Source: Dulcicalothrix desertica PCC 7102
GTDB taxonomy: Bacteria > Cyanobacteriota > Cyanobacteriia > Cyanobacteriales > Nostocaceae
Length of the DNA stretch: 64,000 nt
NCBI RefSeq assembly: GCF_003991905.1
Contig: NZ_RSCL01000031.1
Coordinates: forward strand, 1-64,000
Direction: 5' to 3'
Made by a program: the position numbers and the translations under genes. Of the stretch, positions 1 to 64,000 are shown one piece after another. The notes beneath the pieces are model-generated. The model did no database searches. It worked only from the letters and a program-made list of their open reading frames with translations, and had not been told where the DNA came from. Numbering within the stretch: the first letter of the stretch is position 1; each line of letters starts with the position of its first letter.

Positions 1-2
1 TA

Positions 3-875
3 TGTTTATTTACTAATGCCAGTACGTATTTATGTAATATTTTATGCGACATTCTGAAGTGCGGAATATGGGATATAACGATACTGTTTCGTACACGTAG
101 TCATGAAGCTGCAAAAAACTGGCTTGATGCGACTTTTGGTGTGCAGCGTCAAAGCAATTATATAGATAACCGTATTATTTGGTATTTTGTGCAGTTAGTA
201 GGTTGGTTAGTCGCACTCGGCGCCATTGCCCCTATTTTTCATATTAGCTTGAACGAGAAAAGTCCAAAAATACTTAATTGGGCAGGTTTATTGGCGGCGC
301 CGTTTTTTGGCAGCGGTGCGCTAATGCTGTTTAATAACTTTGGTAATATCGACGGTTTGGGTGGAGTGTTGGTTGGTGGAGCAGTAAGTATTTGGTATGG
401 TGTCGCTGGTATAACTTGGCTACTTATTATGGCACGTTTACCAAGACTGAGAATACAGGCATTTTTTGCTGGAATTGCTCTATTTGCCCTGCTGTGGATA
501 GCTTTTGGAGCAATGGCGCAGGTCGTATGGTTACAATGGTTGTTGGCGCCTGTTAGGTTACAATTATTTCCCATTCTCACAATTACTTGTTTTCCTTGGT
601 TTTTAGCATCGGGAATAACGCAGCAACATCTCACGTTTGGAAAACGAGTTTTATGGTGGTTAGGACAAAGCATAGTGTTAATAGGTGGATTTATTTTGGT
701 GCTTTACCTCTTGCCTCAACTTAGTTTTATTGCATTATTACTACCCGTTTTCCCTGTGTTGCTGGCTATATTTTCTTTCACAGCTAGCGTACTGAACGAG
801 GCTTGGAGTTATGCTATTGGTAATGCCTTGTTTTTTGGATGGGCACTAGCTGCTACTTTTCCTTTAGCGAGTTAA
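3..875 (+). CDS. Polytopic membrane protein, 5' end outside window
   Basis: The frame is open from base 3 to the stop at 875. Protein-like text (RTRSHEAAKNWLDATFG) precedes the first possible in-window start, GTG at 141, so the true start probably lies left of the window. From GTG 141 the product would be 244 residues. It is very hydrophobic, with about seven membrane segments (for example IIWYFVQLVGWLVALGAIAP and a double hairpin near residues 175-215). No enzyme motif is visible. The hydrophilic text before 141 could be the end of a soluble domain such as an alpha/beta hydrolase fused to this membrane part, but that is a guess. Function unknown. Confidence 0.5.
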   Translation, partial: CLFTNASTYLCNILCDILKCGIWDITILFRTRSHEAAKNWLDATFGVQRQSNYIDNRIIWYFVQLVGWLVALGAIAPIFHISLNEKSPKILNWAGLLAAPFFGSGALMLFNNFGNIDGLGGVLVGGAVSIWYGVAGITWLLIMARLPRLRIQAFFAGIALFALLWIAFGAMAQVVWLQWLLAPVRLQLFPILTITCFPWFLASGITQQHLTFGKRVLWWLGQSIVLIGGFILVLYLLPQLSFIALLLPVFPVLLAIFSFTASVLNEAWSYAIGNALFFGWALAATFPLAS

Positions 876-918
876 AGTATTATGTGCAGGTGTTAATTTA
901 TAAAGCTGGATTAACAAA

Positions 919-1155
919 ATGATACCAGCAGATGGTCAAAATCTCCCTATTTGTGAAACCCAAGTGACACCAGAATGGTTGACCCCGGAGTCCATTCAGT
1001 ACGTAGCTGAATGTATCAATGATTGCGAAAATGCCCAAATGCTAGCAGAATTAAGACATATCTTTCCACGGCAAGTTCTAACCGAGGCATCGCGATATGT
1101 CAAACCGCACCAACGTCAAAACATACGACTGTGGCTCACAGAACTTAATAAGTAA
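919..1155 (+). CDS. Small conserved-looking hypothetical protein
   Basis: This 78-residue soluble acidic protein starts at ATG 919, 43 bp after the preceding membrane protein gene. It is rich in helix-forming residues (WLTPESIQYVAECI, HIFPRQVLTEASRYV, QRQNIRLWL) and has no signal peptide or membrane segment. The last third reads like a short helical domain of the kind found in small cyanobacterial hypothetical proteins. I do not recognise a family. It ends just before an inverted repeat that could terminate transcription. Confidence 0.55.
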   Translation: MIPADGQNLPICETQVTPEWLTPESIQYVAECINDCENAQMLAELRHIFPRQVLTEASRYVKPHQRQNIRLWLTELNK

Positions 1156-1157
1156 AA

Positions 1158-1235
1158 AAACCCGGTTTCTACGCATTCATTGTCGCAGACAAATCCTCGT
1201 TTTTATTACAATATGTCAAATAAGAAACCGGGTTT
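1158..1235. repeat. Intergenic inverted repeat, ACCCGGTTTCT family
   Basis: Arms AAACCCGGTTTCT (1158-1170) and its exact complement (1223-1235) flank about 52 bp. The same arms recur at 45121-45183 and 49707-49773, so this is a dispersed intergenic element. It lies right after a stop codon and could act as a terminator or mRNA end-stabiliser. Confidence 0.8.
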
Positions 1236-1386
1236 CTAAGAATTTATAAATACGTATAATAAAAGCTGATTTGAAACTTTTGATTAATAAATACCTTCCA
1301 TAAGTCAGACCCAAAAATCAAGCACTAGATAGAGGCATCAGGCGCCTGTATTTATTTATTCTCAGCAATATACTAACAAGTTTCAC

Positions 1387-4783: not shown

Positions 4784-6550
4784 TTATTTAATTCTTAGAA
4801 ATTTCCACTTCTGTGTTTGATTATCCCAGGATAATGTGTAGTTTAAAGAAATACGCATAGTGTTACCTGCCTTCATATTATAAGCAACACGAGTATTCAC
4901 TACAGCATTATTAGAATTGGTTTTTATTACGTCTACCTGCTGCACATCAATTGATTTAACTGTTTTCCACCAATCTGCAAAGGATGCATATCCGTTTGGG
5001 TGTACTTTTGTATCTGACTGCAATGCTTTAGGTAATCTATCCCATGCAACTTCATAGTTACCGCTGTTAATATCATTATAGTAATTCACTACTTCAGTTT
5101 TTGGAGATGGTAAAGAAGTATTAAGACTTGTTTGATTGTTACCCAACTTGGTTTCTTGCTGTACAGAATTTGGTAGGGGTGATGGTGTTATTGCTGTTTT
5201 ATTAGTCGTAGTGTTTTGAGTAGCTTGAGTTTGCTCAAGAGGATTTGGTACTGGTAATGATGTTGTTGCTGTTTGATTAGTCGTAGTGCTTTGAGAAGCT
5301 TGAGTTTGCTCAACAGAACTTGGTCGGGGTGATCGTATTATTGCTGTTTGATTAGTCGTAGTGCTTTGAGAAGCTTGAGTTTGCTGAGGATAATTTGGTA
5401 CGGGTGATGATGTTATTGCTGTTTGATTAGTCGTAGTGCTTTGAGAAGCTTGAGTTTGCTCAGTAGTTTTTGGAGTGTTTAATGCTGGTAATTGGGTATT
5501 TTGAGAGGGTTGAGGGTTTTTTGTTGAATCTAATTCGCTTGGTGATTGTTGTACTACTGTCTGTGAGGTTTTTGTTAGCATCATGCTGGCAATAACAGAA
5601 GTACTAATTAAGGCGCCTGCACTCAAGATACCTATAATAATAGGATTTATTCCCTTTGATTTATTGACAGAAGCATAAATAGGATTCGGTTGAACTACGG
5701 CTGTTTTTACTACTGTTTGCTCAGGTAAGTGTACGTAACCATTCTGTAATGCATCAAGCATTTCTTTTGCAGTAGCAAAGCGCTCCCGTGGATGATAATA
5801 TATTGCTTTATCAACTACAAATTTAAGTGTAGGGCTAACATTCAAAGCATGGTGATGCCAAATAATTTCGCCTGTGCGAGAATCTGTTTCTAATTCTTCT
5901 GGGTATTTACCAGTTAGTAAATAAATTGCAGTAATACCTAAACTATATAAGTCACTAGAAAAAACTGGTCTACCCATTGCCTGTTCACTTGGCATATATC
6001 CAGGAGTACCAATCACTATTGTACTTGTTGGATTACCTTGAGAGTTAACTGCTGTTCCCATAACTTCCCTTACCGCACCAAAATCAATCAGCACTGGTAA
6101 ACCATCTTGATAGCGCAAAATAATATTATCAGGTTTAATATCTCGGTGAATAATTCGCCTGGAATGAATATAATCAAGTAATTGCAATAAGCTTAATAAT
6201 ATTTCTCGAACAATACTTTCACTTATAGTTCCTTGTTTTGATACTTTAGTCGCTAGAGTGTCGCCATCAATATATTCTTGAACTAAATAAAATAAGCCAT
6301 TCGATTCAAAGTAAGCATATAAATTCGGAATTTGATTGTGCTTACCACCTAGCTCCTCTAATATTGCTGCTTCACGTTGAAAGCGCTCTTGAACTAGCTG
6401 ATAAATTTGAGGATTATTTTGAATTAGTTTTAATTGTTTAATTACGCAAGAGCGATTTGAAGGCATTTGAATATCTTCGGCTAAGAAAGTTTCACCAAAT
6501 CCCCCAGTTGCTAATGTTTTTTTTATTTGATAGCGATTGTTAAGTAGCAT
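4784..6550 (-). CDS. Membrane-anchored Ser/Thr protein kinase with extracellular NTF2-like domain
   Basis: From ATG 6550 (MLLNNRYQIKKTLATGGFGE) the product is 588 residues. An upstream in-frame start at 6721 would add 57 AT-rich, non-kinase residues and is less likely. The kinase domain (1-270) has the glycine loop TGGFGETFLA, VIKQL lysine, IIHRDIKPDN and DFGAV. A membrane helix (about 305-328, PIIIGILSAGALISTSVIAS) is followed by a Thr/Gln/Ser-rich stretch with four 25-residue repeats. The C-terminal 100 residues (YYNDINSGNYEVAWDRLP onward) resemble NTF2-like sensor domains found on cyanobacterial kinases. Likely a receptor kinase sensing something outside the cytoplasmic membrane. Confidence 0.88.
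   Translation of the reverse strand: MLLNNRYQIKKTLATGGFGETFLAEDIQMPSNRSCVIKQLKLIQNNPQIYQLVQERFQREAAILEELGGKHNQIPNLYAYFESNGLFYLVQEYIDGDTLATKVSKQGTISESIVREILLSLLQLLDYIHSRRIIHRDIKPDNIILRYQDGLPVLIDFGAVREVMGTAVNSQGNPTSTIVIGTPGYMPSEQAMGRPVFSSDLYSLGITAIYLLTGKYPEELETDSRTGEIIWHHHALNVSPTLKFVVDKAIYYHPRERFATAKEMLDALQNGYVHLPEQTVVKTAVVQPNPIYASVNKSKGINPIIIGILSAGALISTSVIASMMLTKTSQTVVQQSPSELDSTKNPQPSQNTQLPALNTPKTTEQTQASQSTTTNQTAITSSPVPNYPQQTQASQSTTTNQTAIIRSPRPSSVEQTQASQSTTTNQTATTSLPVPNPLEQTQATQNTTTNKTAITPSPLPNSVQQETKLGNNQTSLNTSLPSPKTEVVNYYNDINSGNYEVAWDRLPKALQSDTKVHPNGYASFADWWKTVKSIDVQQVDVIKTNSNNAVVNTRVAYNMKAGNTMRISLNYTLSWDNQTQKWKFLRIK
5166..5465 (-). repeat. Four tandem 75-bp repeats inside the kinase gene
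   Basis: Four in-frame 75-bp units encode a 25-residue motif beginning TQASQSTTTNQTA and ending in a Pro-rich turn. Corresponding points lie at 5193, 5268, 5343 and 5418, exactly 75 bp apart. The three units nearest the membrane helix are the most alike and the last (TQATQNTTTNKTA) has diverged. They form a low-complexity extracellular spacer. Confidence 0.9.
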
Positions 6551-7110
6551 CTTTATAAATTTTTTATTTGTAATACTCGTATAGTTACATTTAGTTACTG
6601 TAGCTTGACGAAAACAATTAACCATAACAGTCGTGACAATATATTTAGCAATAATTTTAATTAGATAATTGTCACTAAAACTTTTAATCGCGCTGTCACT
6701 TATATAATTGCCGTATACCACCCATTATTAATACGCAAATCATTGACTACTGCCTTATTCTCAAATCTTAGCATAAATTTAACCTAAGTATCTGTCAAGA
6801 TAAATTAGTAATTAAATTTACAATTAATCTACGTAAATATTTATTCTACATTTAACCAGTTATTATATCAAGTCAGGATGATTAGTTATAATACAATTAG
6901 TTCACGTAGGTTGGGTAAAAACTTATAGTAGTGAAACCTAACCTACATAAATTATAAGTATTTAGCGCGCACATCATTATTACTTGTCATAAGCGTCTTT
7001 GTCATATTCCACGGCGCCTAAAACTTTAAGATGCTACCATCCGGGAAAACTGCGCCCTTCGTACCTCAGCATGACATAAGTTCAAATTTTACTTGTTTGC
7101 AGTATAATAA
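6551..7110. other. Intergenic region with one hairpin repeat
   Basis: This 560-bp AT-rich gap holds the upstream region of the kinase gene, one GTAGGTTGGGT/ACCTAACCTAC inverted repeat (6906-6946) and one GGCGCC near 7014. No ORF or RNA gene is convincing. Confidence 0.6.
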
Positions 7111-7962
7111 CTATTCAAATACTACAGTTCTATCACCATAAACCAGCACTCTATTTTGTAAATGCACCCGCACTGCTCTAGCTAAAACCATTCTTTCTAA
7201 ATCTTTACCCTTACGAATTAAATCAGCTACATCATCACGGTGACTTATTCGCACTACTTCTTGCTCGATAATGGGTCCTTGGTCTAAATCTGCTGTAACA
7301 TAGTGAGCAGTGGCGCCTATAATTTTAACTCCCCGTTGATACGCACGCTCATAAGGATTGGCGCCAACAAAGGCAGGTAAAAATGAATGATGGATATTAA
7401 TAACCTGTGGAAATTTACTAACAAAGTCGAAGCTCAGAATCCTCATATACTTTGCCAAAACCACTAAGTCAATATTATATTGTCGTAGAAGTTCTAACTG
7501 TTTAGCTTCCTGTTCGAGTTTATTTTCGTTATTTATTGGAACATAATGATAATCAATACCAAACTGGTTTGCAATAATTTGTAAATCAGGATGATTGCTG
7601 ATAATTAAAGGAATTTCTGCCGCTAACTCGGACGCGCGCTGGCGCCAAATTAAATCTAACAAACAATGGTCTTGACGACTTACCCAAATTGCAATTCGTG
7701 GTACAGTGTCAGAAAAATGAAGCTCCCATTTGGCATCTAAAGGTTGAGCAATCGCGTTGAAAGCTGGACTAATTAGTTCGCGGGGTAAGTGAAAACCCTC
7801 TAGCTGCCATTCAATTCGTGTCAAAAATAACCCGACGGCAAAATCTGTATGCTGGTCGGCGTGAACAATGTTACCACCGTTGGCATAAATAAAATTAGCG
7901 AATTTTGCTACCAACCCTCGTTGGTCAGGACAAGAAATGAGCAGAGTTGCAGTCGCGGTCAT
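7111..7962 (-). CDS. purU: Formyltetrahydrofolate deformylase
   Basis: The 283-residue protein is the usual PurU length. Residues 1-80 are an ACT-like domain (TLLISCPDQRGLVAKFANFI, then NIVHADQHTD). The rest is the formyltransferase fold with IAIWVSRQDHCLLDLIWR, the active-site stretch INIHHSFLPAFVGANPY (catalytic His) and GATAHYVTADLDQGPII (catalytic Asp). It hydrolyses 10-formyl-THF to formate and THF, balancing the one-carbon pool. Start ATG 7962 gives the canonical N-terminus. It is a single gene, divergent from the MFS gene. Confidence 0.95.
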   Translation of the reverse strand: MTATATLLISCPDQRGLVAKFANFIYANGGNIVHADQHTDFAVGLFLTRIEWQLEGFHLPRELISPAFNAIAQPLDAKWELHFSDTVPRIAIWVSRQDHCLLDLIWRQRASELAAEIPLIISNHPDLQIIANQFGIDYHYVPINNENKLEQEAKQLELLRQYNIDLVVLAKYMRILSFDFVSKFPQVINIHHSFLPAFVGANPYERAYQRGVKIIGATAHYVTADLDQGPIIEQEVVRISHRDDVADLIRKGKDLERMVLARAVRVHLQNRVLVYGDRTVVFE

Positions 7963-8454
7963 ACAATTTTAAACTACATACGTTGTAGAGACGCGATGAA
8001 ATAGCGTCTCTACGAGGATATATTTTTACATTATGTTGAAAAGGCGCCTTCCATTGCAATAGAAGTATGCCTTCATGCGTTTGTGCTTTGATTGCATTCC
8101 AAATTAGTGCATATGAACTATAAGCGCAGAAGTATTAAATCACAGGGATTTGCTTAACAAAATAATAACTCTTAAGTAAGATTATTTTGATTTATCTTTT
8201 AATTATTATAGGTTATTAAATTAGTGTAAACAAATACAAATATGTTTATTGTAATAATCCGTTCAGGAATTGTCAAAAGTTCCCAAATGTAGATGTTCCG
8301 TTATTGAGTGTTCTACATTTGGGAATTTTACGTTGAGTTATGCTGATTGCTATACAACCATTTTAAAAGCTAAAAAAGTTGATTTATATTGTCAACTTTC
8401 TTTTTTTGCTTAGAGTCAAATGATTCCTTTATATAAGACTTTGTGCTGTTTAAT
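7963..8454. other. Divergent intergenic region with two hairpins
   Basis: The 492-bp gap between divergent purU and the MFS gene holds a GTAGAGACGC/GCGTCTCTAC inverted repeat (7985-8013), one GGCGCC (8043), and a perfect 14-bp inverted repeat TTCCCAAATGTAGA (8280-8293) with its complement at 8312-8325, followed by TTTT. The second looks like an intrinsic terminator, yet no plus-strand gene precedes it. Confidence 0.65.
8280..8325 (+). terminator. Terminator-like hairpin without an upstream gene
   Basis: A 14-bp perfect stem (TTCCCAAATGTAGA and complement, 18-nt loop) is followed by a short T run at 8326-8329. It is 130 bp upstream of the MFS start codon. It could end a short RNA started in this gap or attenuate the MFS transcript. 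Confidence 0.45.
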
Positions 8455-9909
8455 ATGTCTAATAACCAAGGTGACGACTTTTTAACAGAAGTAACTTCTC
8501 TTCCCATTCACGAAATATCGCAAGATGTAGTAGTGATGGAAAAGGTACTTCCTGTAACTTCAAAACTACCTTTGAAAATTACTAAGCCGGAAATTCGGAC
8601 AAGTCTTAAAGCGTTAACTGTCGAAAGCATCTTTGCTACTGTTTTTTACAGTATTATTGGTGGTGCCTTGCTGACTAATTTCTTGTTAGAGCAAGGTGCT
8701 GATTGTGTGCAAATTGGTCTGCTTGCTTCTATTCCTCAACTGGTGAATCTAGCCCAACCGTTGGGAGCATACTTGTTAGAGCGATTTACTAGCTTCCGCT
8801 GGTATACTTTAATCATTTTTGCTTCGTCGCGATTAATGTGGCTGATTCTTTTACCACTGATTTGGTTAGTTACTTCGTCTCGAATTACAGGTTGTCAAGT
8901 AGTGCAGTTGACGTTGGGAGTTGTCTGGATAACTAACATCATTGAAGCTTTTGGTCGCGCTCCCTGGTCAGGCTGGACAGCTATATTAGTACCACGACAG
9001 TTACGGGGACGGTACTTTGGTTTTCGCAATAGTCTTTTAAGCGGTTCAGGTCTTCTAAGTGTGCCATTGTTAGGTTTTACTGTGTCAGCTTGGCCTGGTG
9101 GAACAGCTCAAGGTTTCGGCGCCGTACTGACATTAGGAATTGTGCTTGGGGTTATCAGTCTGGCGAGTCAGTTCTGGATGAAAGATGTTAACCCACAGTT
9201 ATTAAAAGCCAAACATGACAATACTTCATCGCAACCGAAGAAAATAGATACTACCGTTTTGAAAGATGGCAATTTTATGAAGTTTGCCTTCTACCTGGCT
9301 ATATGGTGTTTTGCTGTTAATGTCAGCGCTCCCTTCTTTAACCTCTATATGCTTGATAACTTACATATAGATATTAGTGTAGTCACAATTTATAACGGTT
9401 TAGCAGGGGCAGCTAACATGCTGATGCTGCCACTTTGGGGCAAACTAGCCGACCGCACTGGGAACCGTCCGCTGCTATTATTGGTAGGAGTTTTGGTGGC
9501 AGTGATACCTGTGTTATGGCTCTTTACTGGAAAGCATGAAATGACTATGTGGGTATTGTTTCCTTTGTTGCATGTGCTTCACGGTGCAACGTGGGCAGCG
9601 ATTGATTTATGTACTAACAATATCATCATGGGATTGGCGCCCTTACAACATCAATCGTCTTATTTTGGGCTTTCGGGCGCCGTTGCTGGTCTGACTGGAG
9701 CAGCGGGAATTACTGCGGGCAGCTTTTTTGCAACAGGACTTGGTGCTGGTGGTTTGTTAGTGCTATTCGCTATCTCCAGTGTTTTACGACTAGTTGCACT
9801 ACTGCCCTTAATGTTTGTTGATGAACAGCGTTCTTTAGCTTTAGGTCAGTTTATAAAAGTTTTGTTTCCTGAGTGGAAAAAAGCAGAACCATTAGCGGCA
9901 AATGATTAA
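8455..9909 (+). CDS. MFS transporter
   Basis: From ATG 8455 the product is 484 residues. A GTG at 8443 would add four residues and cannot be excluded. A hydrophilic N-terminus of about 50 residues precedes roughly 12 membrane helices in two halves, split by a cytoplasmic loop near residue 250 (HDNTSSQPKKIDTTVLKDG). The loop motif GKLADRTGNRPLLLL after a helix is the MFS motif A (GxLaDrxGrk). Substrate unknown. It stands alone between long gaps. Confidence 0.85.
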   Translation: MSNNQGDDFLTEVTSLPIHEISQDVVVMEKVLPVTSKLPLKITKPEIRTSLKALTVESIFATVFYSIIGGALLTNFLLEQGADCVQIGLLASIPQLVNLAQPLGAYLLERFTSFRWYTLIIFASSRLMWLILLPLIWLVTSSRITGCQVVQLTLGVVWITNIIEAFGRAPWSGWTAILVPRQLRGRYFGFRNSLLSGSGLLSVPLLGFTVSAWPGGTAQGFGAVLTLGIVLGVISLASQFWMKDVNPQLLKAKHDNTSSQPKKIDTTVLKDGNFMKFAFYLAIWCFAVNVSAPFFNLYMLDNLHIDISVVTIYNGLAGAANMLMLPLWGKLADRTGNRPLLLLVGVLVAVIPVLWLFTGKHEMTMWVLFPLLHVLHGATWAAIDLCTNNIIMGLAPLQHQSSYFGLSGAVAGLTGAAGITAGSFFATGLGAGGLLVLFAISSVLRLVALLPLMFVDEQRSLALGQFIKVLFPEWKKAEPLAAND

Positions 9910-9919
9910 CTGATAGTAT

Positions 9920-10050
9920 GCAACGGATGCAACGGATGTAACGGATAAGTTATTGCTGTATCCGGGCTTGAAGTATCTGACGTGCTATCTCAAACAAAAT
10001 CTACTTATTTAAGATCAACCATCCGTTACATCCGTTCATTATCCGTTGCC
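9920..10050. repeat. CAACGGATGTAACGGAT inverted repeat element
   Basis: Iterated CAACGGATG/TAACGGAT units (9920-9948) face their complement ATCCGTTACATCCGTT onward (10021-10050) across about 70 bp, forming a long hairpin between convergent genes. The same element is at 15682-15782, and a half copy at 45880-45907. It likely works as a bidirectional terminator. Confidence 0.8.
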
Positions 10051-10053
10051 AAG

Positions 10054-11181: not shown

Positions 11182-11194
11182 GTTAAAAAGTTAT

Positions 11195-11313
11195 GAGTTA
11201 AGAGTTAGGAGTTAGGAGTTAGGAATTAACAATTATAACTTTTCTTCTTACTCAACACCCAGCACAGACGCGATAAATCGCATCTCTACACTCAGCACTC
11301 AGCACTCAGCACT
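11195..11313. repeat. Short tandem repeats (AGTTAGG and CTCAGCA)
   Basis: GAGTTAGGAGTTAGGAGTTAGG-like 8-bp iterations (11195-11227), a degenerate AGACGCGAT/ATCGCATCTCT copy (11265-11289) and three CTCAGCA units (11289-11313) fill the gap. CTCAGCA iterations recur at 16735-16804. Confidence 0.7.
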
Positions 11314-11314
11314 T

Positions 11315-12828: not shown

Positions 12829-12833
12829 CAAAT

Positions 12834-12861
12834 GTAGAGACGCGATTAATCGCGTCTCTAC
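12834..12861. terminator. Perfect 28-bp palindrome between convergent genes
   Basis: GTAGAGACGCGATT followed at once by its exact complement lies 5 bp after the ribE stop and 11 bp before the M23 peptidase stop. It is a member of the GTAGAGACG family (7985, 28682, 55894, 58298, 63663) and probably terminates both transcripts. Confidence 0.7.
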
Positions 12862-12872
12862 GACTACACTTT

Positions 12873-16732: not shown

Positions 16733-16734
16733 TT

Positions 16735-25950: not shown

Positions 25951-28155
25951 CTACCCAACCAACTCCATCCCCCGTTTAACCAAAGCATCAGCAGTCAACC
26001 CATTAAACGCCATCAACTCACCTGCACTAGCGGTAGTTTCCCCACGCTTCCAAGCAAAAGTATCCCGCACACAATTACTGCGTAACATAATAGGTTCCAA
26101 CATAGCCGAGGCGCCACCAGTAACACCAATTAAAGCATCTCCTCCAAACAACTGATTAAATTTTGCATCATCAATAAACCCACCATCAGCTTCAGAACAT
26201 GTATCCCAAGCTACATCCGAAGCACGATACAAACGACGAGGATTAATTACAGAAACAATACGACTTCCTACACCTTGTGCTTGAAGTGACTTAGCAGCTT
26301 CGTAAACAGGAATTAATGTCATATCACCGATAACTGCAAATACCACTGTCTTATTTCCAGAAGTTTCTTGTAAAACTACGGCGCCATTTTCTAAACCTTC
26401 GCGTGTTTGTGCAAAAGTAGTTCTAATTGCCAAAGGTGATTTACTAGCAGTAATTACAATTCCTTTATTCTTAGTAGTTAATGCCCAGTCGTAACAAACC
26501 TGGATACTATTAGCATCAGGTGGGAATACAGGGAAAACGTTTCCATTACGCATCATCGAGGCAAAGTAAGCTTCGATTTCGGGACGTTGGTGAGTCCAAC
26601 CGTTACGTCCTTGTTCTAAGGCGCCTGCTGTATATAAAGTAATTGTAGACGGTGTTTGGCGCCGTAATTCAGCCATTGCTTGCGTAACTGTCTGAAAAAT
26701 GGGCAACCCATTAATTGCAAAGGACTCGTAAGAACACCATAATGTTCTGGCGCCCATTAATGCCAAACCTACTGCTAAACCTGCACAAGCGTCTTCACTC
26801 AATGGTTCATAAACTTGACCACCAGGTGCTTGGTTATACAAATCATCTTTGACAGGGTGATTAATTTTTAAAGCTTGGTTGATATTGGCAATACCTGATG
26901 CTTCGTTACCATCAGCGTTAGTGACAAGGAAGTTTTTGTCTTTTTGTCCAACTATACCTACTAATCTTCCCATTGCTGTAGTAGAAACTTTCGCTTCGCC
27001 ACCTACTTCATATTCTTCTAAAGGTAAGGCGCCGATATCAGCTAATGGTAACTCAAATTCGGTGACAGCAGTCTTGGATGCTGGCCCACCACCTGCTTTT
27101 TCAAGGTTGGTTCTAACTAACTGCCAAGCTTCCTGAGTCAGCGCGCGTTCTTTAAGCGCACTTATAATATGTGGAGCATCAAGTGTATCTTTAGCATACA
27201 AGTTGTGTGACTTGGCGCCACGTGCGTGAACTCCAGCACCTTTTAATTGTTTAATAATAAAGACGGTTAATTTGCCACCAAGTGCTGACTTCGCTGCTTT
27301 ATCGACATTTTCTAAAATAGCTTTAGTAAACTCAATCCTTTTAGAGAACGAAAAAGCTGTACTATCAACATAATCACCAGGCTGGTTTTTATCGTCAAAG
27401 TCCTTTGCGTCAACTAATATAACTTCCTCAAAACCATTACCTTGCCAGTACGCTATCATCTCTGCGTTAGATTTAGTTGAGACCATACTGTGGTGTTCTT
27501 GGCTAAAACCATTCCATACCAACACGGGTAAGAAATTTGTCACATCTGGGTATGCAGTATGAAAATGACTCATCGAACTCATAATGTAAGGTTCACCCAA
27601 ACCACCATCACCCACAGTGAACGGGAAAAGCTTATCACGATGAAGTAATGCTGCTGACATTGCAAAGTGTTGCCCTTGCCCTAATGGCCCAGCAGGCGCC
27701 AAAATACCAGGAATATATCCAGAAAGGTGTCCGAGAAGTCCATGCTTTTCACGGAAACGGTCGCGTAGTTGCTGCACAGTGGAAATGCCCATATCTTCGA
27801 GCGAACGGTCGAGGAACATGGCACTATAAAAACCGGGAGCATGGTGTCCGACTTCGGTAACAATATTTTTGTGACCAAGCATGACTAAAGCAGCATAAGC
27901 TTCAGCTTGACTTGCGAAACCACCTGGGTGCCCTGAAGCTTTGGAACCAGTGACTTGTAAAGTTAAGTAACGGAGTGCATCGGCATAGAGAAGTGTCTGG
28001 TATACTGCCGCATCATCACTGGGGTTAACGACATTACCAGTTAATGCACTTTCTTTTCCATACTTATCAAAGTCCGGCAAAGGTTCCCCAAAATATTGTA
28101 TGCCTTCACAAAAATTGGGAATAACTGAAGTTGGCTTTGGGGTTGTTGCTGTCAT
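25951..28155 (-). CDS. TPP-dependent transketolase/phosphoketolase-like enzyme
   Basis: The 734-residue protein has the three-domain order of the transketolase superfamily. TPP/Mg binding is in FTVGDGGLGEPYIMSSMSHF (GDG near 187, N near 215). SGHPGGFASQAEAYAALVML near residue 75 carries the transketolase-type SGHPGG motif, and LLGHLSGYIPGILAPAGPLGQG recalls phosphoketolase. The pyrimidine-binding domain lies near 430-560 (EDACAGLAVGLALMGARTLW) and the C-terminal domain follows. Length lies between transketolase (about 670) and phosphoketolase (about 800). The donor sugar phosphate cannot be decided from sequence alone. Single gene, five or more GGCGCC sites. Confidence 0.75.
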   Translation of the reverse strand: MTATTPKPTSVIPNFCEGIQYFGEPLPDFDKYGKESALTGNVVNPSDDAAVYQTLLYADALRYLTLQVTGSKASGHPGGFASQAEAYAALVMLGHKNIVTEVGHHAPGFYSAMFLDRSLEDMGISTVQQLRDRFREKHGLLGHLSGYIPGILAPAGPLGQGQHFAMSAALLHRDKLFPFTVGDGGLGEPYIMSSMSHFHTAYPDVTNFLPVLVWNGFSQEHHSMVSTKSNAEMIAYWQGNGFEEVILVDAKDFDDKNQPGDYVDSTAFSFSKRIEFTKAILENVDKAAKSALGGKLTVFIIKQLKGAGVHARGAKSHNLYAKDTLDAPHIISALKERALTQEAWQLVRTNLEKAGGGPASKTAVTEFELPLADIGALPLEEYEVGGEAKVSTTAMGRLVGIVGQKDKNFLVTNADGNEASGIANINQALKINHPVKDDLYNQAPGGQVYEPLSEDACAGLAVGLALMGARTLWCSYESFAINGLPIFQTVTQAMAELRRQTPSTITLYTAGALEQGRNGWTHQRPEIEAYFASMMRNGNVFPVFPPDANSIQVCYDWALTTKNKGIVITASKSPLAIRTTFAQTREGLENGAVVLQETSGNKTVVFAVIGDMTLIPVYEAAKSLQAQGVGSRIVSVINPRRLYRASDVAWDTCSEADGGFIDDAKFNQLFGGDALIGVTGGASAMLEPIMLRSNCVRDTFAWKRGETTASAGELMAFNGLTADALVKRGMELVG

Positions 28156-28412
28156 GCTAGGTACCTTAAAGATGCTTATTACAAAGAGAAGCCGATCATA
28201 AACTCACCATCGGGAACCGACTGGTGCGCTTGTCCAATTTAACAAAGATTTTACAACTTCCCGGTTCCCTCAGTTATTTGTTTTCCGCAATACAATAATA
28301 AGTAAGCTTGAGGAATACATGTATTTGCTAGCTACATACAAGCTCTTGCGGGATAGGGGTCTCGCCTGTCCCTACATAAAGATACAATAAACGTACATTT
28401 GTACCTTTACCT

Positions 28413-28664
28413 ATGACAAATACTATCACCACAACAGAAGCGCGGGCAAACTTCCAAGACGTGCTTAACCGAGTCGAGCATGGAGGTGAACGCATCGTAA
28501 TTGAGCGACATGGTAAAGCAGCAGCTGCCATTGTGACGGTAGAAGACTTCAAGCGACTAGAAGACCTAGAAGATGTTATTGCATCCAGACAATTACAACA
28601 AGCAGTCGAACAAAACAATGGTTTTACGACTTTAGAGGCAATTGTTGCTCAAAGAGGTTTATAA
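28413..28664 (+). CDS. Phd/YefM family antitoxin, no partner seen
   Basis: The 83-residue protein has the Phd/YefM fold signature: TITTTEARANFQDVLNRVEHG, then ERIVIERHGKAAAAIVTVEDFKRLE. Such proteins bind DNA with the N-terminal half and a toxin with the C-terminal half. No toxin gene follows within 100 bp; the next feature is a palindromic repeat and then an unrelated toxin-antitoxin pair. It is therefore an orphan antitoxin or one that lost its toxin. Start ATG 28413. Confidence 0.85.
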   Translation: MTNTITTTEARANFQDVLNRVEHGGERIVIERHGKAAAAIVTVEDFKRLEDLEDVIASRQLQQAVEQNNGFTTLEAIVAQRGL

Positions 28665-28681
28665 AAACCTGCAACCACCAC

Positions 28682-28709
28682 GTAGAGACGTTACATGTAA
28701 CGTCTCTAC
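28682..28709. repeat. Perfect 28-bp palindrome, GTAGAGACG family
   Basis: GTAGAGACGTTACA is followed directly by its exact complement. It lies 18 bp after the Phd/YefM stop and is likely a terminator. The family has members at 7985, 12834, 55894, 58298 and 63663. Confidence 0.8.
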
Positions 28710-28771
28710 TACATAAATTATTAATTTCAGAGTTAGAATTGATTATATATATCAATATCTAGGTAAAAGCG

Positions 28772-28996
28772 ATGACCTACGGAGACATCATTACTATTGA
28801 ACCAGGTAAGCGTGGTGGTAAACCCTGTATTCGAGGAATGAGAATTACAGTGTATGATATTTTAGAATATCTTGCAGCAGGAATGTCTCATCAAGAAATT
28901 CTTGAAGATTTTCCGTACCTAACTGAGGACGATATTCGAGCTTGCCTTAGTTATGCTGCTGATAGAGAAAAAATGTTAATGGTTGTAAAAGTGTGA
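28772..28996 (+). CDS. DUF433 family antitoxin
   Basis: This 74-residue protein has the DUF433 pattern: ITIEPGKRGGKPCIRGMRITVYDILEYLAAG with a winged-helix-like region, then SHQEILEDFPYLTEDDIRACLSYAADRE. DUF433 proteins are antitoxins of DUF5615-type toxins. It overlaps the next gene by 4 bp (GTGA), giving a coupled pair. Start ATG 28772. Confidence 0.88.
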   Translation: MTYGDIITIEPGKRGGKPCIRGMRITVYDILEYLAAGMSHQEILEDFPYLTEDDIRACLSYAADREKMLMVVKV

Positions 28997-29325
28997 AGTT
29001 GCTCTTTGATCATAATTTATCCCCAACATTAGTAAATCGTTTGCAAGACCTTTATCCTGATTCCAATCACCTTTACAGTTTAGGTCTTGATCGAGTACCA
29101 GATACAGAAGTTTGGGAATATGCACAACAAGAAAACTTTTTAATTGTTACTAAAGATGCTGATTTTAGCGACCTCTGTTTGCTTCGTGGCTTTCCACCCA
29201 AAGTTATTTGGATTCGACGGGGTAATTGTAAAACAGCCGATATTGAAGCAATACTGCGAAGCCACTATGATGATATTACTAAATTGAATAATGAAGGAAC
29301 AGTTGGTGTACTGACATTATTTTAG
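28993..29325 (+). CDS. DUF5615 PIN-like toxin
   Basis: The 110-residue protein opens MKLLFDHNLSPTLVNRLQDLYP and continues DRVPDTEVWEYAQQENFLIVTKDADFSD, the DUF5615/PIN-like nuclease pattern with conserved acidic residues (D6, E near 40, D near 58 and 61). The start is a GTG overlapping the DUF433 stop. It is probably an RNase toxin neutralised by the upstream antitoxin. No GGCGCC lies in this block, in contrast to the surrounding genes. Confidence 0.88.
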   Translation: MKLLFDHNLSPTLVNRLQDLYPDSNHLYSLGLDRVPDTEVWEYAQQENFLIVTKDADFSDLCLLRGFPPKVIWIRRGNCKTADIEAILRSHYDDITKLNNEGTVGVLTLF

Positions 29326-29345
29326 TCAAAAAGAAGTCTTAATAT

Positions 29346-29576
29346 AACAGAGGTAAAAAAAGGCTTCGGTACATTGAATTTCAAACCAAAGTCAAAAATG
29401 GCTGAATCCAAGTTACTGATGAGTATAAACAAGAACTTAATAAGTTAGACGATATTAAAGTCATAATTTTAGTGAATAATAAATTACATAGGCAAAAAGA
29501 TATTATTGATGAGTTAACAGAAAATCCCGTTCCAGTTGATGGTTTTCTTAGCCGCGAAGAAGTTTACAGTAAATAG
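29346..29576 (+). pseudogene. Remnant of a small antitoxin-like gene with in-frame TGA
   Basis: A frame without a normal start codon reads RLRYIEFQTKVKNG, then TGA (29403-29405), then IQVTDEYKQELNKLDDIKVI and on to DGFLSREEVYSK and a stop at 29574. The residue at TGA fits Trp (NGWIQV), so a G-to-A change is likely. The pattern resembles the small beta-rich antitoxins that precede PIN toxins in cyanobacteria, but the family is not certain. No toxin gene follows. Confidence 0.5.
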
Positions 29577-29648
29577 TTATGACTAATGGTTATTTGTGCC
29601 ATAAAGTACTAACTATTAGAACTTACGATACTATTACAACTATAAGTT

Positions 29649-29707
29649 GGTGCGTGACGCTACAAGTCTTATAACTACGTTGAAATCTTTTCGTAGCGTC
29701 ACGCACC
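29649..29707. repeat. Hairpin GGTGCGTGACGCTAC/GTAGCGTCACGCACC
   Basis: A perfect 15-bp inverted repeat (29649-29663 and 29693-29707) encloses 29 bp. It lies between the antitoxin remnant and the first P450 gene. It could be a small non-autonomous element or a terminator. Confidence 0.7.
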
Positions 29708-29827
29708 CTACTAATTACCAAGAACATAGGTTAAATTGGCTACTTTTTAAAAATATTGTAACAAAACTTAATAATTAATTTGGGGTTTCAATGGCACAAC
29801 AGAAGTAATACTTCTCTACATACAAGT

Positions 29828-31192
29828 ATGAAACTTCCAAACGGTCCGCAAACTCCTGCAATTGTACAAATGCTTCAATGGGTTGCTACTCCCATGTGGT
29901 TTATGGAAGATTGTGCAAAGCGTTATGGTGATATTTTTACGCTACAGTTAAATATGCCACTTGTATTGATTAGTAACCCGCAAGCGCTACAGCAAATTTT
30001 AACAGGTGATGGTAAAGAATTTGCGGCGCCTAGCAATTTAAATTCGGTGTTTGAACCACTTCTAGGAAAAAACTCTGTAATTACAGTTAGCGGTGAAACG
30101 CATAAACGTCAGCGACAGTTATTAACACCACCTTTTCACGGTGAACGAATGCATAATTATGCTCAAACTATTAGTAATATTACCCAAGAAGTTATTAAAA
30201 GCTGGCAAGTTTCGGAAGTTGTTTGTATTCGTTCGGTGATGCAAACTATAACTTTACGGGTGATAATGCAAGCTGTATTTGGATTATATAACGGTGCCCG
30301 TGCCCAGGAACTTGAGAAAGTTATTAGCATTATGATGGATGCAGGTGGAAGTTCACCTTTACGCGCGCTTATGTTATATTACCCTGCTCTGCAACGCGAT
30401 TTGGGTAAGTTAACACCGTGGGGGATTTTTTTAAGGCGCCGGGAAATGGTAGATAAGTTAATATACGCCGAAATTGCCGAACGTCGAGAAAACCCTGACC
30501 CATCATGTACTGATATTTTAAGTTTATTAATGGCAGCGCGCGATGAAAACGGTGAACCGATGACTGATGTGGAGTTGCGTGATGAGTTGATAACACTGTT
30601 AAGTGCTGGACATGAGACAACCGCAACAGCTTTAACTTGGGCATTTTACTGGATACATAAAACACCATCGGTACGTTATAAGTTATTAACTGAACTTGAT
30701 GGTTTGGATAATATGGACTTTAATGCTGTTAATAAGCTGCCGTATTTAAGTGCTGTTTGTAACGAAACCCTGCGAATTTATCCTGTAGGAATGCTGACTT
30801 TTCCGCGCGAGGTGAGAGAACCTGTAAATTTGTGTGGCTATGATTTAGAACCAGGTACTTATATTATGGGTTCGATTTATTTAACTCATCGACGTGAGGA
30901 TATATATCCAGAAGCAAACCAATTTAGTCCAGAAAGATTTTTGGAGAAACAATTTTCTCCGTATGAATTTTTACCTTTTGGTGGTGGTGTACGTCGATGT
31001 ATTGGTAATGCTTTTGCAATGTTGGAAATGAAGGTTGTTTTAGCTACGGTTATGAAGTTGGTAGAGTTGGAGCTTGTTACTACTGAGGATGTTAGACCAC
31101 GACGACGCGGTTTGGTAACGGGTCCAAATCGTGCCATTAATATGAGTGTTAAAGAAATGAGGGAAGCGCGCGTGCTTAGTACGAGCGTTTAA
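29828..31192 (+). CDS. Cytochrome P450, CYP110-like
   Basis: From ATG 29828 (MKLPNGPQTPAIVQMLQWV) the product is 454 residues. A TTG at 29780 would add 16 unrelated residues. P450 landmarks: I-helix LLSAGHETTATAL, K-helix ETLRIYP (ExxR), and heme loop FLPFGGGVRRCIGNAFA with the axial Cys. The N-terminus without a membrane anchor and the overall text match the CYP110 family of filamentous cyanobacteria, some of which hydroxylate fatty acids or terpenes. The next P450 gene starts 84 bp downstream. Confidence 0.92.
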   Translation: MKLPNGPQTPAIVQMLQWVATPMWFMEDCAKRYGDIFTLQLNMPLVLISNPQALQQILTGDGKEFAAPSNLNSVFEPLLGKNSVITVSGETHKRQRQLLTPPFHGERMHNYAQTISNITQEVIKSWQVSEVVCIRSVMQTITLRVIMQAVFGLYNGARAQELEKVISIMMDAGGSSPLRALMLYYPALQRDLGKLTPWGIFLRRREMVDKLIYAEIAERRENPDPSCTDILSLLMAARDENGEPMTDVELRDELITLLSAGHETTATALTWAFYWIHKTPSVRYKLLTELDGLDNMDFNAVNKLPYLSAVCNETLRIYPVGMLTFPREVREPVNLCGYDLEPGTYIMGSIYLTHRREDIYPEANQFSPERFLEKQFSPYEFLPFGGGVRRCIGNAFAMLEMKVVLATVMKLVELELVTTEDVRPRRRGLVTGPNRAINMSVKEMREARVLSTSV

Positions 31193-59433: not shown

Positions 59434-60048
59434 TCAATACGGCTCGCGCGCTAATCCAGCAATTAAAGTACGAGTAACAAATTCTGATAATGCTTGAATA
59501 TCCTGAGCTTGAGTAACTGGTAATCGCCCATCAATTAGCAACATTGCTAACCCATGCACCGTTGACCAAGCAACCCACCCTAGTTGCATTGTATCTCCTG
59601 CTCTCACAGCAAGGGCAGATTGCCCTGCTTCAATAGCATTAAACAATACCTGAAACGCCTGCCATCCTGCCTGCGCGCGTTCTGGATGAGATGCTTGCTC
59701 TCCCTGATAACTACCAAACATCACCCTGTAATGAGATGGATGAGCTACAGCAAACTGTACATATGCTACTCCAGTTGCTTCTAAACGTTTCAGGGGTTCA
59801 TCCGGCGCCTGCTCTATCCCCCTATTCATTGCTTCTGTTAAGCCAATAAATCCTTCTTCTGCGACTGCTGCTAATAAGCTCTCCTTATCCTGAAAGTGTC
59901 GGTAAGGCGCCGCATGGGACACTCCCACCCTTCGCGCAACTTCCCGCAGCGACAAACTACTTACATCCTGTTCTGCAATCAGTGAGATGGCGCCATCAAT
60001 TAACGCCTGTCGTAAATCTCCATGATGATACGCAGTTTTCTCAGCCAT
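59434..60048 (-). CDS. TetR family transcriptional regulator
   Basis: The 204-residue protein has an N-terminal TetR HTH: SLSLREVARRVGVSHAAPYRHFQDKESLL (near 25-55). A C-terminal helical ligand domain follows (HPSHYRVMFGSYQGEQASHP is the conserved mid-section of the TetR_C_33-like group). It is divergent from the oxidoreductase gene at 60159, and the 110-bp gap carries a large inverted repeat. It probably represses both genes. Start ATG 60048. Confidence 0.92.
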   Translation of the reverse strand: MAEKTAYHHGDLRQALIDGAISLIAEQDVSSLSLREVARRVGVSHAAPYRHFQDKESLLAAVAEEGFIGLTEAMNRGIEQAPDEPLKRLEATGVAYVQFAVAHPSHYRVMFGSYQGEQASHPERAQAGWQAFQVLFNAIEAGQSALAVRAGDTMQLGWVAWSTVHGLAMLLIDGRLPVTQAQDIQALSEFVTRTLIAGLAREPY

Positions 60049-61877: not shown

Positions 61878-62747
61878 ATGTCAATAGATAGTTTACTTTG
61901 CACTATTCCCGGAGAAAACACGCCTTTACCAGTTTTTGAGAAGATTGTGCGATTACTGAAGGGTGGTGTTTCTTATGGTTGTAGTAATCCTGCACATTTT
62001 GCGGAACACACCGACCCTCATTTTAAAATTGCGATTCCGTTTGAAGGAGCATCGATTCATACTACTTGGCAAACAGCATCAGGACAACGTAAACAAAATC
62101 ATGTTAGGCAAGGTCATGTTTCTATTCTTCCAGCAAACTTACCTCATGAGACAACTTTAGAAAATCGGTTAGAAATGATTATTGTAAATTTAGAAGCATC
62201 GTTAATTGAAGAAGTCGCTGAGGAATTAGTTGGAACTGTTGAAATTATTGAAAATTGGACTGCGCGCGATGTATTGATTCGTCAATTAGGCTTAGAACTG
62301 CGGCAAGAATTTCAACATGGTTCACCAAGGCTCTTGTATGTAGAATCAGCCGTTAATATTTTAGCAACACATTTAGTTAGACATTATTCAGCTAATCGCG
62401 CTGATATCAATGATTTACACCAAAGACTTTCAGCGCAGAAGCTAAAACAGGCAACTGATTATATAAGCGAACACCTGGAAGAAAATATAACCCTTGCTGA
62501 ACTAGCTTTTGTAGTACAAATGAGTCAATATCGTTTTGCGCGCGCATTCAAGCTATCTACGGGATACTCACCACATCAATATTTAATGCAGCAACGTATC
62601 GAGCGAGCGAAACATCTTCTTAGTCAAACTAAAATACCAATTGTAGAAATTAGCTACAAGCTAGGTTTTTCCAGTCAAAGCCATTTTACTTCAGCATTTC
62701 ATCGCTTAGTTGGAGTGACACCAAAAAATTATCGAAGTAAATTGTAA
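61878..62747 (+). CDS. AraC family transcriptional regulator
   Basis: The 289-residue protein has an N-terminal cupin-like ligand domain (FKIAIPFEGASIHTTWQT, VSILPANLPHETTLENR) and a C-terminal double HTH (195-285). The HTH contains ITLAELAFVVQMSQYRFARAF and IPIVEISYKLGFSSQSHFTSAF, followed by VGVTPKNYR. It is on the same strand 111 bp after the oxidoreductase gene and might regulate it, or the methyltransferase 108 bp downstream. Ligand unknown. Confidence 0.92.
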   Translation: MSIDSLLCTIPGENTPLPVFEKIVRLLKGGVSYGCSNPAHFAEHTDPHFKIAIPFEGASIHTTWQTASGQRKQNHVRQGHVSILPANLPHETTLENRLEMIIVNLEASLIEEVAEELVGTVEIIENWTARDVLIRQLGLELRQEFQHGSPRLLYVESAVNILATHLVRHYSANRADINDLHQRLSAQKLKQATDYISEHLEENITLAELAFVVQMSQYRFARAFKLSTGYSPHQYLMQQRIERAKHLLSQTKIPIVEISYKLGFSSQSHFTSAFHRLVGVTPKNYRSKL

Positions 62748-62855
62748 TTTTTTTGATATGGGCAAGTTTTTGATAAAGCGGCAAGAATTTAAAAGACTGG
62801 TGAGTAATGAAACAAATATTCTGAAGTAAATCACAACATCATTCTTGCAAAAACT

Positions 62856-63551
62856 ATGGATTTCAATAAAGTTGCTTTTCTCCCAGAAGCCGAACAATAC
62901 CACGAGACGGCGGCGCATCTTGTCCCAGGTTATGCATCGTTGTATGAAATTGCTGGCTGCTATCTTAGTTTAAATATACCTGATAATGCCAATATATTAA
63001 TTGTCGGCGCCGGGGGTGGGATGGAGATTAAAACTCTTGCCAAATTTTCCCCCACATGGCAGATGACAGGCGTTGACCCATCGTCAAAGATGCTTGAAGC
63101 TGCAAAATTCTGGGTAGAACACGCCAATGTCACAAATCAAGTTAAATTGATTGAAGGCTTGATATCAGATGTATCAAATGAGACTTTATTTGATGCAGTT
63201 ACGTGTATTTTAGTAATGCATTTCCTTGATGAAGCAAAAAAAATACAGCTTTTACAAGATATTTATACCAAACTTAAGCCCAATGGGATTTTAGTTTTAG
63301 CAGACATGTCTATATCTAAAAACACAGAAGAATTTGACATATTTATTAATCTTTATTGTCAACATGCTAAATTTAAGGGAGAGTCTGAGGAAAAGCTTCA
63401 ACAACTTCTAGATGCATTAAATACTTCGACTTTCCCAATTTCAGGAGAAAAAGAAGCCGAATTAATCACAAAAGCTGGATTTACAAAACCAATAATGTTC
63501 TTTTCTTCACTTTGGTTTAAAGCTTGGTTTGCTAGTAAAGTGGTAAGTTAA
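62856..63551 (+). CDS. SAM-dependent methyltransferase
   Basis: The 231-residue class I methyltransferase has motif I ILIVGAGGGMEIKTLAKFS (near 48), GVDPSSKMLEAAK and an active-site-side stretch AVTCILVMHFLDEAKK. ILVLADMSISKN follows. It resembles small-molecule methyltransferases without a clear substrate. Start ATG 62856. It may form a unit with the upstream AraC gene. One GGCGCC overlaps the motif I codons. Confidence 0.88.
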   Translation: MDFNKVAFLPEAEQYHETAAHLVPGYASLYEIAGCYLSLNIPDNANILIVGAGGGMEIKTLAKFSPTWQMTGVDPSSKMLEAAKFWVEHANVTNQVKLIEGLISDVSNETLFDAVTCILVMHFLDEAKKIQLLQDIYTKLKPNGILVLADMSISKNTEEFDIFINLYCQHAKFKGESEEKLQQLLDALNTSTFPISGEKEAELITKAGFTKPIMFFSSLWFKAWFASKVVS

Positions 63552-63662
63552 CACAAAGGACATAGGCGCCTATAATAATTATAAGTATAAATACTGATGT
63601 CAAGGCTAATACTAACACCAACAATATAGGCGCCGCGCATCATTTATAAAATCCGCACGTCT

Positions 63663-63690
63663 TAGAGACGCGATGTTCCTCGCGTCTCTA
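63663..63690. repeat. TAGAGACGCGA/TCGCGTCTCTA palindrome
   Basis: An 11-bp perfect inverted repeat (63663-63673 and 63680-63690) lies between convergent methyltransferase and LysR genes. It belongs to the GTAGAGACG family. Likely a bidirectional terminator. Confidence 0.75.
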
Positions 63691-63705
63691 CATGGATATA
63701 ATTTT

Positions 63706-64000
63706 TTATAAATCATGTAAGACTGTTATAGTATCTAAAAACTTATGTAAGATCGCCGATGTTTCATGCCGGCGCCAAATCATTGCCAATTCGACTTGTG
63801 GAGTTTCTTCTGCCAAATCTTTATATATTACTCCAACTCGTTGAATATTTTGCATAGAAGAGGGAACTATCGCAACTCCTAACTCTGCTGCGACTAAGCT
63901 AACGATTGTTTGCATTTGCACTGCTTCTTGTGCTACTTGAGGACTGAAACCTGCTTTTTGGCATATGGTGATAATTTGATCATAAAAGCCCGAACCCAAA
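63706..64000 (-). CDS. LysR family regulator, C-terminal part only
   Basis: The frame enters from the right edge (no start in the window) and codes the last 98 residues of a LysR-type substrate-binding domain: GFSPQVAQEAVQMQTIVSLVAAELGVAIVPSS is the conserved effector-domain segment, followed by PQVELAMIWRRHETSAILHKFL. The DNA-binding part lies outside. The target is unknown. Confidence 0.88.
   Translation of the reverse strand, partial: LGSGFYDQIITICQKAGFSPQVAQEAVQMQTIVSLVAAELGVAIVPSSMQNIQRVGVIYKDLAEETPQVELAMIWRRHETSAILHKFLDTITVLHDL

What the first reader, a model, noticed from the sequence alone, without database searches (positions are those of the whole stretch)
1..64000. GGCGCC replaces HIP1 as the highly iterated palindrome
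About 124 GGCGCC sites were counted by eye in 64 kb of AT-rich DNA, where a few would be expected by composition. They occur in coding and non-coding DNA on both strands, often adding Gly-Ala or Ala-Pro codon pairs (for example GGCGCC inside GAGxx turns). The usual cyanobacterial HIP1 octamer GCGATCGC was not seen. HIP1 abundance is thought to be tied to DNA methyltransferases and repair, so a core switch to GGCGCC implies a different methylase specificity in this lineage.
Basis: partly seen in the sequence, partly recalled or inferred. Interest (0 to 1): 0.75.

Follow-up and report, generated by a model that had tools for sequence, protein, structure and literature searches.

The report
GGCGCC replaces HIP1 in Calothrix
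In one genus of filamentous cyanobacteria the six-letter DNA word GGCGCC is repeated more than once per kilobase in place of the usual cyanobacterial word, apparently because a DNA-marking enzyme lost its cutting partner while another cutting system removed the old word.

Summary
In detail: 125 GGCGCC against 3.1 expected from composition, no HIP1; genome-wide 19,393 GGCGCC and 58 HIP1, no more than the reversed control's 62. It is already published: Elhai 2015 (PMC4390886) reported GGCGCC as an alternate HIP in Calothrix PCC 7103, here congener G060.

Added here. (1) The trait is genus-wide: 7 of 7 genomes at 1150-1711 per Mb; the other 210 family genomes have at most 111. (2) All 7 carry a HindV/BsaHI-type m5C methyltransferase (predicted site GRCGYC) and no HindVP restriction gene was found; one genome keeps that gene's last 20 codons beside the methyltransferase. 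(3) All 7 carry a DpnII-type GATC restriction-modification pair and GATC is scarce, which would remove HIP1. (4) Of 40 C-to-T changes in GGCGCC, 33 hit the central C (16 expected), as deamination of a methylated base would give; outer positions change about fourfold less than background.

The driving force (methylation-directed repair or selection) is open. A solitary methyltransferase is not sufficient: 17 other family genomes have it without GGCGCC excess of this kind.

The parts
1..64000. 125 GGCGCC sites (first at 219, last at 63771; all starts listed); 17 GATC and 11 GGCC sites, no GCGATCGC
   Evidence: Counts. The methyltransferase and restriction genes discussed lie outside the window: D1 at G000:C4:441733-442689, DpnII-type pair at G000:C17 near 92651-93478.
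59804..59994 (.). Example of a dense stretch: GGCGCC at 59804, 59906 and 59989
27695..30030 (.). Example of a long gap between neighbouring GGCGCC sites (27695 and 30025)

Best explanation
GGCGCC is the alternate HIP of a Calothrix genus. Most likely history: a GATC-cutting DpnII-type restriction-modification pair, now in all seven genomes, drove GATC, and with it HIP1 (which contains GATC), close to zero. In the same lineage a GRCGYC restriction-modification pair of the HindV/BsaHI type lost its restriction gene and left a solitary m5C methyltransferase (D1) that marks the central C, GG(m5C)GCC. Methylated GGCGCC sites then accumulated to 1.1-1.7 per kb and are maintained: outer positions are held while the methylated C decays to T faster than background. 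Shown by sequence: the counts, the genes present, the absence of a detectable HindVP gene with a relic in one genome, the constraint, the position-specific C-to-T excess. Inferred: methylation in vivo, the order of events, and the force. I favour methylation-directed mismatch repair that fixes mutations creating G(m5C), Elhai's ratchet, over plain selection for the site.
For: Genus-wide trait, 7 of 7 against 0 of 210. D1 in 7 of 7 (split over two contig ends in G061, which also has an 83% copy elsewhere), one clade at 100/100, same neighbours in six genomes. HindVP (PF09519) not found in the 7; relic of residues 357-376 of 376 just upstream of D1 in G063 (0 of 150 random draws as good). Where D and HindVP are both present (39 genomes) GGCGCC is depleted, median 0.71 per Mb against 5.09 in 150 genomes with neither. 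DpnII-type gene beside a D12 methyltransferase in all 7, GATC at 10-46% of expectation. Footprint: 33 of 40 C>T/G>A singleton changes at the central CG, expected share 0.40, p=3e-8; 33/114 sites against 119/1013 other NNCGNN (p=4e-6) and 15/123 other xGCGCy (p=0.002). M.BsaHI methylates that base (PMC2413257). Conservation: 106 of 142 sites kept in G062 against 42% of other GC-rich hexamers.
Against: Seventeen family genomes outside the genus have D with no HindVP match (four of these D matches are fragmentary or broken) and are not enriched as a group: median 6.08 per Mb, max 42.6, p=0.57 against genomes with neither. The switch is one clade, so one event; the comparisons ignore phylogeny. 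G194 also has scarce GATC and low HIP1 but no DpnII gene in the dmtA locus read, so GATC loss has other routes. G063 has GATC at only 46% in 20 kb, and HIP1 at 147 against a control of 37. The relic is in one genome; the other D1 loci searched show none. The footprint rests on two regions and 114 of 162 columns. Methylation was not measured.
Confidence: 0.5

Rival explanations
1. The word itself is selected as a functional site (bound by a nucleoid, repair or uptake protein, in the way of Chi or DNA uptake sequences) and methylation of its central C is incidental.
For: Outer positions change about fourfold less than background (7 against 27.6 expected); near-miss words at outer positions are mostly scarce; density of 1-2 per kb and nearly random spacing; Gly-Ala pairs in proteins are 1.21-1.24 of expectation in three genus samples (1.03 in G062) against 0.82-0.95 in outgroups.
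Against: In the family the excess is confined to genomes with D and without HIP1, and the central base decays fast. No binding protein is known here. Constraint is equally expected from biased repair.
Confidence: 0.32
2. A second copy of the GRCGYC methyltransferase was needed (dosage), as Elhai suggested for PCC 7103.
For: Five of seven genus genomes have further D matches besides D1 (some fragments; in G061 two of the four matches are the pieces of D1), among them PCC 7103.
Against: The window's genome (1698 per Mb) and G063 (1150 per Mb) have a single D match each at E<=1e-40. The extra copies are about 60% identical to D1 and in two strains lie on plasmid records.
Confidence: 0.07
3. Very short patch repair of the Vsr kind restores GGTGCC to GGCGCC and so enriches the word.
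For: An m5C methyltransferase is present; in E. coli such repair enriches Dcm sites (recalled).
Against: It predicts scarce GGTGCC, but this is the commonest near-miss, 113 against 72-90 expected, although slightly low in ORFs (82 against 99.8). It does not explain constraint on outer bases. Vsr was not searched for genome-wide.
Confidence: 0.05
4. An unrecognised methyltransferase strictly specific for GGCGCC is responsible, not D1.
For: Many methyltransferases are present (13 PF00145 matches in the genome; also PF01555 and PF02086 matches), and GRCGYC is wider than the enriched word.
Against: Of the PF00145 families of the genome only D1 and the family-wide 370-aa type were seen in all seven genus genomes. 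The footprint falls on the base known to be methylated by the BsaHI-type enzyme. GACGCC, GGCGTC and GACGTC are scarce as well, as Elhai's model expects.
Confidence: 0.1

Closest known systems
Alternate HIP GGCGCC of Calothrix PCC 7103 and Calothrix D253 (Elhai 2015, PMC4390886)
   Same: Same word, same genus, HIP1 absent, GATC scarce, GATC restriction gene, GRCGYC methyltransferase.
   Different: Here the trait is shown in 7 of 7 genus genomes; Elhai called alternate HIPs sporadic, not in clades. Single-copy strains, loss of the restriction partner with a relic, and the central-C footprint were not in the sections I read.
HIP1 (GCGATCGC)
   Same: GC-rich palindrome at about one per kb, linked to solitary methyltransferases.
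   Different: Different word; HIP1 is near background in this genus (31-163 per genome, reversed control 37-75). GGCGCC did not arise at old HIP1 places.
HindV/BsaHI restriction-modification group (GRCGYC; PMC2413257)
   Same: D1 is 55% identical to annotated hindVM with the same recognition-domain core.
   Different: No HindVP restriction gene found in the seven genomes; its site is enriched instead of avoided.

Membership tests
HIP sequences (class proposed by Elhai 2015) | GC-rich palindrome at about 1000-2000 per Mb | tested here: met
   1698 per Mb in the window's genome; 1150-1711 over the genus.
HIP sequences (class proposed by Elhai 2015) | Alternate HIPs only where HIP1 is low or absent | tested here: met
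   HIP1 58 against 62 reversed control in G000; 31-163 against 37-75 in the genus, up to about fourfold over control in G063.
HIP sequences (class proposed by Elhai 2015) | A methyltransferase able to methylate the word is in the genome | tested here: met
   D1, predicted GRCGYC by similarity; activity not tested.
HIP1 | GCGATCGC strongly over-represented | tested here: not met
   0 in the window, 58 in 11.42 Mb.
HindV/BsaHI m5C methyltransferases (GRCGYC) | Sequence similarity, C5-methylase domain and recognition-domain core | tested here: met
   PF00145 E=8.6e-66; 55% to annotated hindVM; YYYRHPR and RR(G/A)IFSIDEP blocks shared.
HindV/BsaHI m5C methyltransferases (GRCGYC) | Methylates the central C of GRCGYC | tested here: inconclusive
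   Indirect: excess C>T at that base in GGCGCC. No site of GACGCC, GGCGTC or GACGTC was available in the alignments (0 sites).
HindV-type restriction-modification pair | HindVP restriction gene beside the methyltransferase | tested here: not met
   PF09519 in 0 of 7 genus genomes, 43 of 217 in the family; relic in G063.
Methyltransferase strictly specific for GGCGCC | Recognition limited to GGCGCC | not testable with these tools
   In the stretch inspected no recognition-domain residue separates all seven genus copies from the restriction-linked copies.

The most novel reading that the evidence does not exclude
A methyltransferase that outlives its restriction partner can seed a new genome-wide word: methylated sites are created and kept by methylation-directed repair, at 1-2 per kb, faster than the methylated base decays, once restriction has emptied the place of the old word. 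HIPs would then be self-made landmarks of strand-directed repair, and which word a lineage has would be an accident of which solitary methyltransferase is at hand.
Probability: 0.35. Interest if true: 0.8.

Novelty: new member of a known kind. Interest (0 to 1): 0.52.

Why it matters
What HIP1 is for is still debated, partly because so many cyanobacteria have it. A genus that switched to another word, beside sister genera that did not, makes the question testable with one gene (D1) and one word in culture-collection strains such as PCC 7103, PCC 7716 and NIES-4105. The footprint suggests, from sequence alone, which base of a HIP is methylated, and it is the base that Elhai's repair model requires; the same test could be applied to HIP1. 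The genus-wide spread also amends the published view that alternate HIPs are sporadic.

Tried and rejected
Composition, codon usage and dispersed repeats were tested and rejected. The 370-aa methyltransferase (L017 type) is in all 7 genus genomes but also in 163 of 210 others. For the Eco29kI-linked methyltransferases no G061 member was among the loci compared. PF01555: one group of 301-348 aa, recognised only by match span and length, is in all seven and in the three outgroups searched. Change of the D1 recognition domain: one residue (S for G after TIR) differs in four of the seven genus copies but not in NIES-4105, C42 or the HK-06 copy, so it does not track the trait. Replacement of HIP1 in place: 1 of 21 cases. 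Phylum scan (386 genomes): G420 (2,493 against 38) looked like a second case, but in about 86 kb of readable sequence it has HIP1 (35 sites) and 37 GGCGCC; the script's 3.3-fold excess counted withheld letters in the length, and at its G+C of 0.49 I recalculate about 2-fold. G284 (9,489 against 2,450) has G+C 0.54, 6.2-fold excess and 5 HIP1 in the 171 kb read; unresolved. PADLOC and NCBIfam named no site specificity. A first, smaller footprint pass on the window alone pointed the same way (14 central of 20 C>T/G>A) and is superseded. Loss of the CGATCG methyltransferase (reported by Elhai for PCC 7103) was not tested here. R-only genomes (4 of 210) were left out of the class medians, and some D and HindVP matches counted there are fragments.

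Papers: Elhai 2015, abstract, sections 9, 13, 18 (part 1 of 2), 19 and 21, and passages with GGCGCC; Neely and Roberts 2008, parts 1 and 2 of 4; RIMS-seq paper, one passage. Searches for later work on GGCGCC, HIP1 or a Calothrix methylome showed none in the listings (one open-access library only).
Full report
Observation. The window contains 125 GGCGCC against 3.1 expected from composition and no GCGATCGC; site starts are. The genome (G000, 11.42 Mb, 109 contigs; the window is contig 31, 1-64000) has 19,393 sites and one CCGCGG, the reversed control, and 58 HIP1 against 62 of its control. In 464 kb of the genome the excess over composition is 32-fold (796 against 25.1). With proteins and codon usage held fixed, synonymous shuffling gives 38.3 (sd 5.9) sites where 672 are seen; density is 1.90 per kb in ORFs of 150 aa or more and 1.13 per kb elsewhere. 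Sequence contexts are nearly all unique (3 of 668 distinct 26-mers recur) and gaps are close to random, with few under 20 bases (3 against 22 expected).

Who it is. A search with methyltransferase D1 returned named contigs whose lengths match those of the congeners: G060 is Calothrix sp. PCC 7103, G065 PCC 7716, G062 NIES-4105, G061 HK-06 (NIES-2101), G063 the MAG C42_A2020_038 and G064 the MAG FI2-JRJ7.

Distribution. Of 217 family genomes scanned, all 7 of the genus have 7,475-20,380 GGCGCC with 1-8 CCGCGG, that is 1150-1711 per Mb; the highest of the other 210 are 111, 108 and 106 per Mb (G084, G034, G071; controls 1,270, 355 and 87 sites). HIP1 in the same 217: 31-163 in the genus against reversed controls of 37-75, so at background in most but up to fourfold over it in G063 (147 against 37); the others are far higher, the lowest being G182 (30 against 4, 88% complete), G194 (535 against 57), G191 (574 against 31) and G184 (990 against 52). 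The switch is thus a clade-wide trait, unlike Elhai's statement that exceptional HIPs occur sporadically and not in clades (PMC4390886).

Methyltransferases. The genome has 13 PF00145 matches, some of them two per gene. Grouping those of the seven genus genomes by similarity to the genes of G000 left two families in all seven: the 370-aa type, in 170 of 217 family genomes, and D1, in 7 of 7 and 56 of 210 others at E<=1e-40. D1 is 55% identical to a plasmid gene annotated as HindV modification methylase, next to its restriction gene, and shares the recognition-domain core. M.BsaHI of the same group methylates the central C of GRCGYC, shown by HhaI protection at a GGCGCC site (PMC2413257); Elhai wrote that the methylated base was known for no enzyme of this specificity. 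The genus copies form one clade (100/100; the G061 row is its 83% copy). D1 has the same neighbours in six genomes; in G061, fragments 95% identical to D1 lie at two contig ends, one of them on the contig that carries the same 661-aa methyltransferase gene as the D1 region of G000.

Loss of the restriction partner. PF09519 (HindVP) is found in 43 of 217 genomes and in none of the 7. In 39 genomes with both D and this gene GGCGCC is driven down (median 0.71 per Mb) against 150 genomes with neither (5.09; p=1e-6); 4 genomes with the restriction match alone were left out. In G063 the 20 codons before the stop of the restriction gene survive just upstream of D1, 75% identical to residues 357-376 of 376; none of 150 random stretches of the window's genome matched as well. 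The other six genus loci tested show no such relic. So D1 most likely is what remains of a broken pair.

Loss of HIP1. All seven genomes carry a D12 methyltransferase followed by a gene 87-100% identical to one that scores as DpnII (PF04556) in G000 and G060, and GATC is at 10-46% of expectation in the seven samples (119 against 1,086 in G000; 23 against 50 in 20 kb of G063). In G038 and G194 a dmtA-like gene lies near rbfA with no such gene in the stretch read, and G081 has a related methyltransferase without it. Elhai described the GATC restriction gene and GATC scarcity for PCC 7103; its genus-wide presence is added here. Sites of other restriction-linked methyltransferases are scarce too: CTGCAG 7 against 83 and CCGCGG 0 against 25 in ORFs, with PstI-like and Eco29kI-like genes in the genome (their sites are recalled).

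Footprint. The window and a second 60-kb region were aligned with six congeners. Of 162 columns with GGCGCC in at least one of the five close genomes (four or five compared), 114 have it in all or all but one; the other 48 were not used. The 52 single departures are 33 central C>T/G>A, 7 outer C>T/G>A, 5 other single changes and 7 multiple. Background C>T rates in the same trinucleotides predict 18.0 central and 27.6 outer changes, so the centre is raised 1.8-fold and the outside lowered fourfold (p=3e-8 for the share). Central change per site is 33/114, against 119/1013 at other GC-rich NNCGNN and 15/123 at other words with the same GCGC core. An outgroup has GGCGCC in 20 of the 33 central cases, another word in 7, the same variant in 2 and no data in 4. 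This is what deamination of m5C at that base would produce, on top of strong maintenance of the rest. The word is kept at 106 of 142 sites in G062 against 42% of other GC-rich hexamers, and at 77-89% in the closer genomes against 65-70%. In 464 kb most outer near-misses are below expectation, while GGTGCC is the commonest near-miss, 113 against 72-90, though 82 against 99.8 in ORFs.

Force. Enrichment needs more than a solitary methyltransferase: 17 other family genomes have D and no HindVP match (four of the D matches are broken or partial), at a median of 6.08 per Mb, and in all 17 HIP1 is abundant. In G194 HIP1 is low, D was not found, and no substitute word stands out in 100 kb. This fits Elhai's idea that a substitute arises where HIP1 is gone and a suitable methyltransferase is at hand, but it is one event. 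A second methyltransferase copy, which Elhai thought may have been critical, is not needed now: G000 and G063 have one D match each. GGCGCC did not arise at old HIP1 places (1 of 21 cases). It also shifts proteins: Gly-Ala pairs are 1.21-1.24 of expectation in three genus samples, 1.03 in G062 and 0.82-0.95 in outgroups. I lean to methylation-directed repair over selection for the site, without a decisive test.

Verdict. A real feature of a published kind, in a genome and a genus to which it had not been extended in the papers I could search, with a better supported mechanism: a GRCGYC methyltransferase left solitary by loss of its restriction gene, HIP1 removed by GATC restriction, and methylation at the central C inferred from its decay.

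Noticed in passing
G194 (L187-L191): A 10.7-Mb relative with neither word: HIP1 535 per genome, GGCGCC 326, GATC 23 against 247 expected in 100 kb, and no over-represented GC-rich palindrome there. A HIP-poor large genome would be a natural control for what HIPs do.
   Followed up: partly
G062 (L176-L178) and G063 (L186): CGCGCG is also strongly over-represented: 55 against 3.6 expected in 60 kb of G062, 15 against 1.1 in 20 kb of G063, and 143 against 25 in 464 kb of G000; perhaps a second word in the genus.
   Followed up: no
G284 (L267-L276): Same order, other family: 9,489 GGCGCC in 3.8 Mb while three listed members of its genus have 304-343; G+C 0.54, 6.2-fold excess over composition, 5 HIP1 in 171 kb. 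Either another case or an unusual assembly.
   Followed up: partly
G076-G080: One other genus of the family has a mild GGCGCC excess (20-45 per Mb, control CCGCGG 4-42 sites) with abundant HIP1; four of its five genomes have D and no HindVP match, the fifth is 54% complete.
   Followed up: no
window 1-64000: GGCC is also scarce (11 sites), as in all the samples of relatives read, HIP1-bearing ones included; cause not examined.
   Followed up: no
L042, L052 (G062), L062 (G065): Further D-like methyltransferases about 60% identical to D1 lie on plasmid records of NIES-4105 and PCC 7716, in part broken.
   Followed up: no
window 34654-37038: ORF with NACHT and NACHT C-terminal helical domains (Pfam), a type often found in defence genes (recalled).
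   Followed up: no
window 5165-5462: Four tandem copies of a 75-base unit inside the ORF at 4784-6721 that has a protein kinase domain.
   Followed up: no
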